Shown: positions 18,693 to 24,441 of the stretch, in pieces
How the letters are laid out: the number at the start of each line of letters is the position of its first letter
Position numbering within the stretch: the first letter of the stretch is position 1
The notes under the pieces: generated by a model
Seen by the model: only the letters and a program-made list of their open reading frames with translations
Databases searched by the model: none
Told to the model about the DNA's origin: nothing
Assembly: GCF_004000605.1 (NCBI RefSeq)
Contig: NZ_CP018911.1
Coordinates: 124,001 to 188,000, forward strand
Source of the DNA: Glycocaulis alkaliphilus
Lineage (GTDB): Bacteria > Pseudomonadota > Alphaproteobacteria > Caulobacterales > Maricaulaceae
Length of the DNA: 64,000 bases
Reading direction: 5' to 3'
Position numbers and translations under genes: made by a program

Positions 18693-21122
<2,430 letters not shown>

Positions 21123-21158
21123 GCTTTTCTTGATGGTTAACTGGCCTCTGGAGAATGC

Positions 21159-22664
21159 ATGACGGGCGATCAGCACAATTACCTTGATCGCCTCTTTCAG
21201 GCGACCCGCGGCCTACAAATACCCGAATCTCTTGAGGTGCTTGGTCATATCGACAGGTTTAGACACTTCGGAACGAGGGTCCAAATACCGAGTTTCCCCA
21301 GCCCACCAAAGTATGAGCTTATGAACTGCCCTTTCGGCTTTCCATGGGCGCGGGACCTAGTGGCAGAATCCATTATAATTAATGGAGACTACTTTAGCCG
21401 AGCATCACTATCAGATTACAACATTTTCTCAACCGCGATACGTGCTGCAACAGATTATTGTTTGAGCAGCCCATTTGATTTCGATCAGGTGAGTATCTGG
21501 CGGTACATGGGATCACTCTTATATCAGCAAATTCCCGATCAAAGACCTGTGGGATTTGATGATATTATGCTTTTCTATAAAATATATGACCATCCCAAAA
21601 TTCGTGAATCGTTTAGAGAGGGATTTGATGTCGAATTGGAGTCGTATTTTCAGCATGTTTTTATAATATACTCTTTATTTCAAGATTCAACTTTTATAAA
21701 ATTGCCTTTAAATTTAAATGAGATTCGACTCAATAAACATACTTTGTATAAAATACTTCAGAAAATATCTATGCCAGTAGAATTGCATAGAGAGTTCAGT
21801 AAAGCAAATCGGTTAGCTGGCCACCATAAAAAATTTCACCTATCAAGCTTTGTGAGCAATCCGATTGCTGTGATTGATATAAGTCGGATTGAGCTTTGTT
21901 GCCCATTTGTAGGCCACTTGCTTAGACGATTAACTTATGGTGTATATTATGATCTAATAAAATTAGATAGTTTCGCAAACAACGTGGGGTACGCATTTGA
22001 GGACTGTGTAGGAAATATAATAAAATTGCTATCACTAAGAAAATGGAATGTATACGCTGAATCGATAAATGGAAAAAAAGAGCCAAAATCTTCTTGTGAT
22101 TGGATAATTGTTGAAGATGATATAGGGGTGTTTATCGAGTGCAAATTCAAAAGACCTCTGGTAGATACCAAATCAGATCCGTCAAATGAGGGCGCATTTG
22201 AAAGGGATTTGTTTCATTATGCAAAATTCTGCGCTCAGGCTATAATGGCAGCAGAGCGTGAACACGCAGGATTATTTGGTAGAGACGTGCCCAAGGGAGC
22301 GGTATACATTATTATTGTAACGCCTGAAGATTGGTTGATTCTGAACGGCGTTATCGGTGCTAAAATTCGTAAAATGTGCACTGAAGAACTCCGCAGAAAG
22401 GGATCAGATCCGAAGCTGGTTGAAAAGTATTCGATAATCAATATGGGCTGTTCGTCTTTTAGCTTATTTATTCAGGCGGCAGCCCACTTCAGTTTAACCG
22501 AAGTTTTAATTAGTCACAGCTCGGACGCGCATTTGAATGACTTTACCCCCGGATTTGTAATGAATAATTATAGCGGGCGTGACGGTTTCCGACCGCAAAA
22601 GCTTTGGCGAGAAGATTTTGATAGGCTGATTGACTTGGATCAATTTCGACCAGAGAAAATATAA
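21159..22664 (+). CDS. AT-rich foreign gene, putative PD-(D/E)XK nuclease
   Basis: A 501-residue protein of unknown family. Residues about 278-390 show a PD-(D/E)XK nuclease pattern: Glu281 in FEDCVGNI, Asp314 in SSCDWIIV, then EECK-like Glu327-Cys-Lys329 in VFIECKFKR, and later Gln360 in a helix followed by the strand VYIIIVTPED. The first 260 residues are helical and unassigned. GGAG lies before the ATG. Base composition and codon use (many AT-ending codons, ATA and TTT) are completely unlike the neighbours, so recent transfer is likely. It sits between gyrB and sulP and is followed directly by repeat hairpins. A restriction or phage-defence role is inference; no methylase or helicase partner is visible. 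Confidence 0.7.
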   Translation: MTGDQHNYLDRLFQATRGLQIPESLEVLGHIDRFRHFGTRVQIPSFPSPPKYELMNCPFGFPWARDLVAESIIINGDYFSRASLSDYNIFSTAIRAATDYCLSSPFDFDQVSIWRYMGSLLYQQIPDQRPVGFDDIMLFYKIYDHPKIRESFREGFDVELESYFQHVFIIYSLFQDSTFIKLPLNLNEIRLNKHTLYKILQKISMPVELHREFSKANRLAGHHKKFHLSSFVSNPIAVIDISRIELCCPFVGHLLRRLTYGVYYDLIKLDSFANNVGYAFEDCVGNIIKLLSLRKWNVYAESINGKKEPKSSCDWIIVEDDIGVFIECKFKRPLVDTKSDPSNEGAFERDLFHYAKFCAQAIMAAEREHAGLFGRDVPKGAVYIIIVTPEDWLILNGVIGAKIRKMCTEELRRKGSDPKLVEKYSIINMGCSSFSLFIQAAAHFSLTEVLISHSSDAHLNDFTPGFVMNNYSGRDGFRPQKLWREDFDRLIDLDQFRPEKI

Positions 22665-24441
22665 CTCCCCCCGTGAACGGGGAGACACCAGCCCACGTGA
22701 TCCCCGCCTGCGCGGGAACAACGAAGCAGTAGGCCCTAACCCCCAGCTCCATGAACGCCTCGTACTGGCTCAAATACACCTTGCCGGTGAGGTGATTGAG
22801 GAAGCCGGAACGTTTCAGCCGGTCCATGACCGGGCCCTTGACCTCGGAGAGGTGGAAGGAGAGCCCGCCCTCCTTCAGGCGCTGGTTGATCACCTCAAGG
22901 CTTTCCAGCGCGCTGGCATCAATCGCGTTCACCGCCGGGCACATCAGCACGAAATGCTTGGCTTCCGGCTGCGCGGCGACCAGTTCCAGCACGCGGTCTT
23001 CCAGATAGCGGGCATTGGGAAAATAGAGGCTTTCATCCACGCGCAGGGTGATGAGCGAAGGCGAGGTGATAACCTCGTGGCGGTCAACATTGCGGAAATG
23101 CTCGGTGCCTGGAACCAGGCCGACAATGGCCGTATGCGGGCGGCTGGTCTTGTAAAGATGCAGGCCGATGGAGAGCACCACGCCGGTAAGGATGCCCGCT
23201 TCCACGCCCACTAGCAGCGTGGCGAGTATGGTGCCGGTCATGGCCGCACCATCGCTTTTTGAATAGCGCCAGGTGCGCCGGATGATCGGGAAGTCAGCCA
23301 GCGACAGCACGGCCACGATAATGGTTGCGGCCAGCACGGCGACAGGCAGGTCGGCGAGCCAGGGCGTCAGGAACAGGCTGGCAAGGCCAATCCCGATAGC
23401 GGTGAACGCGCCTGCCGCGGGCGTGGCGGCCCCGGCATCGAAATTGACCACCGAGCGGGCAAACCCGCCGGTCACCGGAAAACCGCCGGAGAAACCCGCA
23501 CCGATATTGGCGGCGCCGAGGCCGATGAGCTCCTGATCAGGATCAATGCGCTGGCGGCGCTTGGCGGCGAGCGTCTGCGCCACCGACACCGACTCCACAA
23601 AACCCACCGCAGACAATAGTAGCGCCGGGCCGATGAGGGCGGAGATCAGGGCCGGGTCAAATGATGGGATGGTAAAGGGCGGCAGGCCGGCCGGAATATC
23701 ACCCACCGTGGCTACGCCCCGCGCGGACAGATCGAATATCTTCACCGCTGCAATGGAGGCCGCGACCGCCAGCAGGGGCGCGGCGCGCCCGATCAGGTTG
23801 GCAACAAACTTGGGCAGGCCCAGCCGCCACAGCAGGTCCGGCGCGCCCTTTCTTGCCCAGGCCAGGAAGGCAAGGGCGGGTATCGCTACGGCGAGCGTCC
23901 ACAGATTGGCCTCGCCAATGGTCGTGACGAGGCTGGCGGCAATCTCCACGCCGGTATGTCCGCCCGCCCCGGTGCCGAGAATATGGCGCATCTGCCCGGC
24001 CGCGATGAGCAGGCCCGCTGCGGTTATGAAGCCGGAAATGACCGGGTGGGAGAGAAAATTGGCGATAAAGCCCAGCCGGAACAGACCCATCGCCACCAAG
24101 ATCACGCCTGAGAGCACGGCGAGGGTAAGCGCGGCGGTGATATAGCCCATACTGCCTTCGTCGGCGACGCGGCCCACGGCCACCGCCGTCATCAGCGAGA
24201 TCACCGCCACGGGCCCGACGGCGAGCGTCCGGCCCGTCCCGAAGATCGCGTAGAGCACAAGCGGGGCCATGGAGGCATAAAGCCCGGTCTCGGGCGGCAT
24301 CCCTGCCAGCATGGCATAGGCGAGCGATTGCGGGATCAGCATGATGGTGACGATCACCGCCGCCATCAGGTCGCTGACAAGCGTTTCGCGCCGGTATTCC
24401 CGGCCCCAGTCCAGTATGGGCAGATAGCGCGAGAGCTTCAC
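22543..24441 (-). CDS. SulP-family anion permease with STAS domain, chimeric C terminus
   Basis: Predicted sulfate, bicarbonate or other anion transporter. The protein has the SulP core of 10-14 membrane segments (MLIPQSLAYAMLAGMPPETG near 35; FVESVSVAQTLAAKRRQ; GAANIGAGFSGGFPVTGGFA) and a cytoplasmic STAS domain (about 430-565). The start is GTG at 24441, preceded by AAGGAG. The conserved part ends near FMELG at about 22741. The last 65 codons run through two repeat hairpins (encoding VVPAQAGIT) and then antisense through the final 40 codons of the foreign gene, so they are not original sequence. It heads a cluster of sulfur genes on this strand. Confidence 0.85.
   Translation of the reverse strand: MKLSRYLPILDWGREYRRETLVSDLMAAVIVTIMLIPQSLAYAMLAGMPPETGLYASMAPLVLYAIFGTGRTLAVGPVAVISLMTAVAVGRVADEGSMGYITAALTLAVLSGVILVAMGLFRLGFIANFLSHPVISGFITAAGLLIAAGQMRHILGTGAGGHTGVEIAASLVTTIGEANLWTLAVAIPALAFLAWARKGAPDLLWRLGLPKFVANLIGRAAPLLAVAASIAAVKIFDLSARGVATVGDIPAGLPPFTIPSFDPALISALIGPALLLSAVGFVESVSVAQTLAAKRRQRIDPDQELIGLGAANIGAGFSGGFPVTGGFARSVVNFDAGAATPAAGAFTAIGIGLASLFLTPWLADLPVAVLAATIIVAVLSLADFPIIRRTWRYSKSDGAAMTGTILATLLVGVEAGILTGVVLSIGLHLYKTSRPHTAIVGLVPGTEHFRNVDRHEVITSPSLITLRVDESLYFPNARYLEDRVLELVAAQPEAKHFVLMCPAVNAIDASALESLEVINQRLKEGGLSFHLSEVKGPVMDRLKRSGFLNHLTGKVYLSQYEAFMELGVRAYCFVVPAQAGITWAGVSPFTGGVIFSLVEIDPSQSAYQNLLAKAFAVGNRHARYNYSLQIRG
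22665..22722. repeat. Half copy of palindromic repeat plus second hairpin
   Basis: Directly after the stop codon of the foreign gene comes CTCCCCCCGTGAACGGGG (22665-22682), the right-end hairpin of the repeat family found complete at 24930, 49497 and 56345. A second palindrome, CCCCGCCTGCGCGGG (about 22702-22716), follows. The left half of the repeat is missing, as if the insertion point lies inside it. Confidence 0.7.

What the first reader, a model, noticed from the sequence alone, without database searches (positions are those of the whole stretch)
21159..22664. Foreign AT-rich gene with PD-(D/E)XK signature between gyrB and sulP
A single 501-residue gene is far more AT rich and uses different codons than every neighbour. 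Residues 281, 314, 327 and 329 (E...D-x12-E-x-K) fit a PD-(D/E)XK nuclease. The large helical N-terminal half is unassigned. Single-gene nucleases next to repeats are plausible defence genes. The nuclease core is seen in sequence; the defence role is inference.
Basis: partly seen in the sequence, partly recalled or inferred. Interest (0 to 1): 0.75.

Follow-up and report, generated by a model that had tools for sequence, protein, structure and literature searches.

The report
Foreign GapS1-like single-gene defence nuclease
A lone foreign gene sits between two housekeeping genes of an alphaproteobacterium and encodes a predicted DNA-cutting enzyme that is a distant relative of the known anti-phage protein GapS1, so it is most likely a one-protein virus defence acquired from elsewhere.

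Summary
ORF 21159-22664 (+, 501 aa) has GC 0.40 and GC3 0.38 against means of 0.644 and 0.731 for 44 other window ORFs. Two of five congeners have a gyrB-sulP junction without a gene. E281, D314, E327 and K329 lie on a predicted PD-(D/E)XK core (pLDDT 83.5, pTM 0.85); the 13 best solved-structure matches are, by recall, PD-(D/E)XK nucleases, four of them at E<=0.001.

What it is: a divergent relative of the anti-phage protein GapS1. NCBIfam NF047931 is the only clear family hit (E 6.5e-18), but at 64.8 bits it misses the curated cut-off of 320, so I call it GapS1-like, not GapS1. It shares GapS1's layout: a helical N-domain with Q-x3-Q, then the nuclease; the tree puts it in a separate clade. 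Known or candidate defence genes lie within five ORFs of at least 13 of 42 relatives' loci, against 0 of 18 control regions.

Extra: relatives occur as single-gene insertions; one (G703) is bounded by 27-nt direct repeats with empty sites in two congeners, and two lie beside tRNAs between 59- and 29-nt repeats. The window copy has no such repeat. Defence activity is inferred.

The parts
21125..22702 (.). Foreign insert relative to the congener G001 (about 1.58 kb, one gene)
   Evidence: DNA alignment to G001 stops at 21124 and resumes at 22703; G001 has 77 bp between the two alignable blocks, G003 258 bp
21159..22664 (+). GapS1-like PD-(D/E)XK nuclease gene, 501 aa
21159..21956 (+). Helical N-terminal domain, residues 1-266
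   Evidence: Separate model pLDDT 85.2, pTM 0.85; only notable PDB match 9wuf (Upx), E 9.3e-3, probability 1.00, TMq 0.51, rmsd 10.7
21528..21542 (+). Q124-x3-Q128 motif of the N-domain (QIPDQ here, QFPWQ in most relatives)
   Evidence: Both Q invariant in alignment A5 of 27 rows and in 12 rows spanning all three clades including GapS1 proper; caution: loci L080-L109 were fetched with patterns that include this motif, the GapS1-proper rows were found with the NCBIfam profile
21957..22358 (+). PD-(D/E)XK core, residues 267-400
   Evidence: Helix 270-291, strands 297-300, 315-319, 322-328, helix 344-369, strand 382-388
21999..22001 (+). E281 codon, helix before the sheet
   Evidence: E in 18, Q in 3 of 21 homologues
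22098..22100 (+). D314 codon, directly before the second core strand
   Evidence: Invariant in 21 of 21 and 27 of 27
22137..22145 (+). E327-C-K329 codons, end of the third core strand
   Evidence: Position 327 E or D, 329 K in 21 of 21; both invariant in A5
22359..22661 (+). Mainly helical C-terminal part, residues 401-501
18702..21122 (+). gyrB, left border of the insertion
   Evidence: 94-98% protein identity to gyrB of congeners G001, G002, G003
22543..24441 (-). sulP-type permease ORF, right border; its 3' end reads into the insert

Best explanation
The gene encodes a single-protein anti-phage nuclease, a divergent relative of GapS1, acquired horizontally and lodged between the convergent genes gyrB and sulP. 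Shown here: it is foreign by composition and by gene-free junctions in congeners, its C-terminal half is predicted to be a PD-(D/E)XK nuclease with all catalytic positions kept, and it shares sequence, layout and invariant residues with GapS1. Inferred: the helical N-terminal domain with the Q-x3-Q motif senses something made or done by an infecting phage, or binds DNA directly, and licenses the nuclease, which then cuts DNA in a metal-dependent way and stops the infection. Whether the target is phage DNA only or also host DNA (abortive infection) is open.
For: Family: the only NCBIfam hit is NF047931 antiphage_GapS1, residues 110-414, E 6.5e-18; all 27 members of A5 hit it at E<=0.001. Layout: Q124, Q128, P235, D314 and K329 are invariant across 12 proteins from GapS1 proper and both other clades. 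Fold: model pLDDT 83.5, pTM 0.85 with a PD-(D/E)XK topology; the 13 best PDB matches are BspD6I chains, Can2, Cdn1, Cap4 and LmuA, only four of them (all BspD6I) at E<=0.001. Context of relatives: at least 13 of 42 loci (two of them near-identical) have a known or candidate defence gene within five ORFs (SIR2-HerA, DRT RT_UG20 and RT_UG9, AbiE, AbiEii, Septu twice, LmuB, type III R-M, type IIG R-M, type II MTase, OLD/AriA-like ATPase, PDC-M65) against 0 of 18 control regions; Fisher p 0.006, or 0.012 counting 12. Patchy distribution: strong matches in 6 of 137 genomes of the family (8 at E<=1e-3, two of them short and weak). Papers: one counts GAPS1 among anti-phage defence proteins, with a structural look-alike in a Klebsiella prophage (PMC12774648, passages); one reports that K. 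pneumoniae GAPS1 protects against many phages (PMC12908700, one passage).
Against: The score is far below the curated GapS1 cut-off (64.8 against 320 bits), and 0 of 299 genomes of its order reach that cut-off. PADLOC finds only a weak CARF-PDDEXK hit, E 0.018. The gyrB and sulP neighbours of the window copy are housekeeping genes, and up to 29 of 42 relatives' loci have no recognised defence gene nearby. Whole-protein TM-scores to solved nucleases are about 0.2, so only the core can match. Q replaces E281 in 3 of 21 homologues. The primary GapS1 paper is not held, so its mechanism could not be read.
Confidence: 0.74

Rival explanations
1. A stand-alone restriction enzyme that needs no partner: it cuts DNA carrying a particular base modification or sequence (type IV-like), the N-domain being the DNA reader.
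For: The closest solved matches are chains of BspD6I, a nicking restriction enzyme with an N-terminal reader and a C-terminal PD-(D/E)XK domain (domain layout recalled); no methyltransferase gene lies in the insert.
Against: Whole-chain TM about 0.2 and rmsd about 24, so the N-domains do not superpose; the N-domain alone matches Upx and no DNA reader at a meaningful score.
Confidence: 0.13
2. A selfish, homing-type nuclease: the gene cuts the empty site and is copied in by host repair, so that its spread, not defence, is its function; anti-phage action of GapS1 would be a side effect.
For: Relatives occur as single-gene insertions; in three repeat-bounded cases the nuclease is the only substantial ORF between the repeats.
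Against: Relatives sit in unrelated targets (gyrB end, maeB end, tRNA-His, tRNA-Met, another gene end). Repeats at tRNA 3' ends are the mark of integrases as recalled, not of homing. At least 13 of 42 loci lie beside defence genes. The window copy shows no repeat (score 9.5, control median 9.5).
Confidence: 0.08
3. A decayed or inactive foreign gene that has drifted in.
For: The congener copy in G003 is split by an IS1595-type element, so copies do decay; the window copy has I and D where most relatives have F and W in QFPWQ.
Against: 501 codons without a stop, with all four catalytic positions and both Q kept, in a protein only 14-22% identical to the 26 relatives in A5.
Confidence: 0.05

Closest known systems
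GapS1 / GAPS1 (NCBIfam NF047931), an anti-phage protein of the Gamma-Mobile-Trio work (Mahata et al. 2024, seen only as a citation)
   Same: Profile match over residues 110-414; N-domain Q-x3-Q and invariant P; the same D...(D/E)-x-K nuclease core
   Different: 64.8 bits against a cut-off of 320; separate clade in the tree; the insert holds one gene only, so no Gamma-Mobile-Trio element; alphaproteobacterial host
BspD6I nicking endonuclease and its small subunit (PDB 6qnz, 2ewf, 2p14)
   Same: PD-(D/E)XK catalytic core (recalled); best Foldseek hits
   Different: 10-13% identity, whole-chain TM about 0.2 for the large subunit; reader domains not alike
CARF/SAVED-type PD-(D/E)XK effectors (Can2, Cdn1, Cap4)
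   Same: PD-(D/E)XK core; weak PADLOC CARF_PDDEXK hit, E 0.018
   Different: The N-domain model is mainly helical and its match list holds no CARF or SAVED chain
Upx (PDB 9wuf)
   Same: N-domain fold match, probability 1.00, TMq 0.51; listed under 'Nuclease Activity' systems in a table of PMC10855318 (one passage)
   Different: 1212 aa against 501; E only 9.3e-3, rmsd 10.7; no sequence match of the N-domain profile to it

Membership tests
GapS1 (NF047931) | Profile score over the curated cut-off of 320 bits | tested here: not met
   64.8 bits; 0 of 299 genomes of the order reach the cut-off, 3 of 398 in the phylum do
GapS1 (NF047931) | Homology over N-domain and nuclease, shared invariant residues | tested here: met
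   Profile positions 83-394 of 455 matched; Q, Q, P, D, K invariant together with the three over-cut-off proteins L061-L063
GapS1 (NF047931) | Falls inside the clade of over-cut-off members in a tree | tested here: not met
   L061-L063 group with two intermediates, L064 and L065, apart from the 8-row clade holding the window protein; 21 rows, supports 90/94 and 91/94, neither starred, midpoint root
GapS1 (NF047931) | Anti-phage activity | not testable with these tools
   No assay
PD-(D/E)XK nuclease superfamily | Core fold of helix, three-stranded sheet, helix, strand with D and (D/E)-x-K on adjacent strands | tested here: met
   secondary structure of a prediction; fold matches
PD-(D/E)XK nuclease superfamily | Catalytic residues meet in one active site | tested here: inconclusive
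CARF/SAVED effector nucleases | CARF or SAVED ligand domain | tested here: not met
   N-domain model mainly helical; no CARF or SAVED chain among its 43 PDB matches. The PADLOC CARF_PDDEXK hit (E 0.018) covers residues 239-332, the nuclease side
Homing endonuclease element | Cuts its own empty insertion site | not testable with these tools
   Sites differ among relatives

The most novel reading that the evidence does not exclude
GapS1-like nucleases travel as minimal one-gene elements of about 1.6-2.1 kb that land just behind the ends of core genes and tRNAs, in some cases between attachment-type direct repeats, without carrying any recombinase: a defence gene that is itself the whole mobile unit, moved in trans by other elements' integrases. 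Three-prime junctions such as gyrB-sulP would be recurrent docking sites for such units (a GapS1-like gene in G000, an unrelated AT-rich ORF in G004, another insert with a duplicated gyrB end in G005).
Probability: 0.2. Interest if true: 0.6.

Novelty: new variant of a known kind. Interest (0 to 1): 0.43.

Why it matters
It suggests that the recently named GapS1 type of one-protein defence is part of a wider nuclease family that the curated GapS1 cut-off misses and that reaches across alpha-, beta- and gammaproteobacteria and MAGs labelled Patescibacteria (binning errors not excluded). The single-gene insertions give a tractable case for asking how a lone defence gene moves between genomes without its own integrase.

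Tried and rejected
Pfam, PHROGs and PDB sequence searches of the protein gave nothing, nor did the family profile against PDB sequences. One GapS1-profile hit, L070 (G511), was dropped as false: it lacks the nuclease residues. The first genome-contig scan with the single protein found nothing; tblastn of phage records found nothing; eight plasmid records hold relatives at about 21-23% identity. Viral contigs gave one relative, L109, and none for the L058 protein. The 59-nt repeat in L148 (G749) scored high (49) but is not counted as an attachment repeat: the insertion there ends at about 5732, well past the second copy. The tRNA-His case in L058 (G223) was at first taken as a verified empty site; on checking, the congeners share the tRNA and its right side and have one repeat copy, but nothing left of the left repeat aligns in the 11 kb or so read in three of them, so the left border is not confirmed and I lowered the novel reading from 0.25 to 0.2. 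L103's PADLOC 'MzaA' hit was not counted: only the C-terminal third matches and I read the protein as a sigma factor (my reading, no call). 'mad2', 'mad3' and 'mad8' hits in controls were treated as generic and not counted on either side. For the neighbour scan 149 of 167 listed ORFs of the first 20 loci were used and 114 ORFs of 22 further loci (six L088 ORFs dropped, three long ones added; duplicates L080, L082, L088 and partial loci L093, L106, L107, L108 left out; L087 had no neighbours). Only the first 25 of 123 and of 118 matching PADLOC families were shown and I picked the proteins to attribute by eye, so 13 is a lower bound; PDC-M30B, PDC-M41B and RTasPolA hits were not attributed to loci. 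Paper searches: ten on GAPS1, Gamma-Mobile-Trio, Upx and single-gene or cis-mobilizable defence elements; no listed title or abstract described this clade or integrase-less single-gene GapS1 elements, which is no proof that none exists.

Full report
Observation. The ORF at 21159-22664 (+) is a long open frame of 501 codons with an ATG start and GGAG five bases before it. Its GC (0.401) lies about eleven and its GC3 (0.377) about five and a half standard deviations below the mean of the 44 other window ORFs of at least 150 aa (0.644, sd 0.022; 0.731, sd 0.063), and its codon usage is the most distant of 41 ORFs. The dip covers only this gene.

Gene-free junction. The window lies in a one-contig genome of 3.02 Mb. 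Two genomes of the same order, G256 and G287, hold contigs of 9,186 and 43,746 bases that match by length and locus the Caulobacteraceae and Hyphomonadaceae MAG contigs, so the order is probably the one of those families. Of five congeners, G001 has 77 bp and G003 258 bp between the gyrB and sulP blocks and no gene; G005 has about 1.2 kb of other DNA with a partial second copy of the gyrB 3' end; in G002 and G004 sulP was not found next to gyrB in the stretch read. In G004 the gyrB stop is followed three bases later by an unrelated 241-aa ORF of GC 0.45 in DNA of 0.686, without a Pfam or PADLOC match.

A second insertion in the genus. Congener G003 carries a relative (33% identity over the C-terminal piece) at another place, between maeB and an MFS-type gene. 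That site has no gene in G000, G001, G002 and G004, with 5 to 59 bp between the aligned blocks; in G005 the downstream gene differs. The G003 copy is split by an element with an IS1595-type transposase and 30-nt inverted ends, 87% complementary. So two genomes of one genus carry different GapS1-like genes at different gene-end junctions.

What the protein is. Pfam, PHROGs and PDB sequences give nothing. NCBIfam gives one family, antiphage_GapS1, E 6.5e-18, 64.8 bits against a cut-off of 320. With that profile 8 of 299 genomes of the order and 11 of 398 of the phylum match at E<=0.001, the window's genome counted in both; 0 and 3 of them pass the cut-off. One of the 11 (L070) I judge false. An alignment of 21 homologues, the window protein included, keeps D314 and K329 in 21 of 21, E or D at 327 and E or Q at 281. 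Twenty-nine loci from genome contigs, including MAGs labelled Patescibacteria, and one viral contig were added; over 27 rows Q124, Q128, P235, R257, D314, E327 and K329 are invariant, and all 27 rows hit the GapS1 profile. The Q-x3-Q motif is present in GapS1 proper too, which was found with the NCBIfam profile and not with the patterns. A tree of 21 rows puts GapS1 proper with two intermediates apart from two other clades; the window protein pairs with the G003 piece (100/98) within an 8-row clade (91/94, not starred; midpoint root). I therefore describe it as GapS1-like and do not file it as GapS1.

Structure. AlphaFold2 on the 27-row alignment gives pLDDT 83.5 and pTM 0.85. Residues 270-388 have the order helix, strand, strand, strand, helix, strand, with E281 in the helix, D314 directly before strand 315-319, and E327 in and K329 just past strand 322-328. 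Foldseek against PDB: four matches at E<=0.001, all BspD6I nickase. The first 13 rows are BspD6I chains, Can2, Cdn1, Cap4 and LmuA; further down come BstEII, R2 retrotransposons and Hjc, mixed with unrelated chains such as mitoribosomal proteins. That the named ones are PD-(D/E)XK enzymes is recall. No viral protein model matched at E<=0.001. The N-domain alone (pLDDT 85.2, pTM 0.85) matched one chain with probability 1.00, Upx (9wuf, E 9.3e-3, TMq 0.51); the other 42 matches have E of 3.7 or more. This is a lead: the N-domain may be shared between two kinds of single-protein defence nuclease.

Context of relatives. The scans differ in detail: five ORFs either side and 1e-10 in the first, three ORFs and 1e-20 in the second, seven ORFs and 1e-20 in the control; all counted genes pass 1e-20. 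The control covers genomes of the first 20 loci only. In 36 of 41 relatives' loci the gene has lower GC than its flanks, in 27 by more than five points (eight duplicate or partial loci left out), so AT-richness is common in the family.

How it moves. I compared upstream and downstream flanks of 45 copies (a 46th had too short a flank) with 270 random placements. Four exceed every control (maximum 16): L058/G223 54, L148/G749 49, L103 29, L150/G703 22; the window scores 9.5 and G003 10, both background. Best case: in G703 a 27-nt repeat spans the stop of the upstream gene and the stop of the nuclease gene, and G012 and G055 have both flanks joined with one copy and no insert (in G028 only the right flank aligned). 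In G223 the repeat is 59 nt of the tRNA-His 3' part; four of five congeners (the fifth lies at a contig end) have the tRNA, its right side and one repeat copy but no nuclease gene, while the DNA left of the repeat does not align, so the left border is unconfirmed. In L103 an exact 29-nt repeat is the 3' end of tRNA-Met; no relative without the insert was tested. In G749 the repeat does not coincide with the right end of the insertion. Between the repeats of G223, G703 and L103 the only substantial ORF is the nuclease; the other frames listed overlap it or are under 70 codons. As recalled, repeats at tRNA 3' ends are left by tyrosine integrases, and integrase-less elements with attachment sites have been called CIMEs. 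Loss of an integrase after integration is the sober alternative to movement in trans. Some relatives do have integrase genes nearby: Pfam Phage_integrase in 6 of 149 neighbour ORFs.

Verdict. A real, foreign, single-gene, GapS1-like PD-(D/E)XK nuclease by prediction; nuclease fold very likely, defence role likely, trigger and substrate unknown.

Noticed in passing
L150:3658-5340 (G703): A GapS1-like gene between 27-nt repeats; the stop codon of the nuclease gene lies in the repeat, and two congeners have the joined flanks without the insert.
   Followed up: yes
L058:7670-9780 (G223): A GapS1-like gene between 59-nt direct repeats of the tRNA-His 3' part; congeners have one copy and no such gene there, but the DNA left of the repeat does not align.
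   Followed up: partly
L103:7680-9468: A GapS1-like gene between exact 29-nt repeats of a tRNA-Met 3' end, with no integrase inside.
   Followed up: partly
L053:7973-10022 (G003): An IS1595-type element with 30-nt inverted ends, a transposase and a 226-aa passenger ORF without a Pfam match splits the congener's GapS1-like gene.
   Followed up: partly
L049:9305-10030 (G004): An AT-rich 241-aa ORF (GC 0.45 in 0.686) without Pfam or PADLOC matches begins three bases after the gyrB stop; by its look it has membrane helices.
   Followed up: partly
L050:5352-6453 (G005): An insert after gyrB ends in a partial second copy of the gyrB 3' end, as if brought in by recombination with a related strain.
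   Followed up: no
window 22543-22800: The sulP-type ORF runs 62 residues longer than in G005 and reads antisense through the REP-like repeat into the end of the nuclease gene.
   Followed up: no
residues 1-266 of the protein (window 21159-21956): The N-domain model matches the solved protein Upx (9wuf), which hints at a domain shared by two kinds of single-protein defence nuclease.
   Followed up: partly
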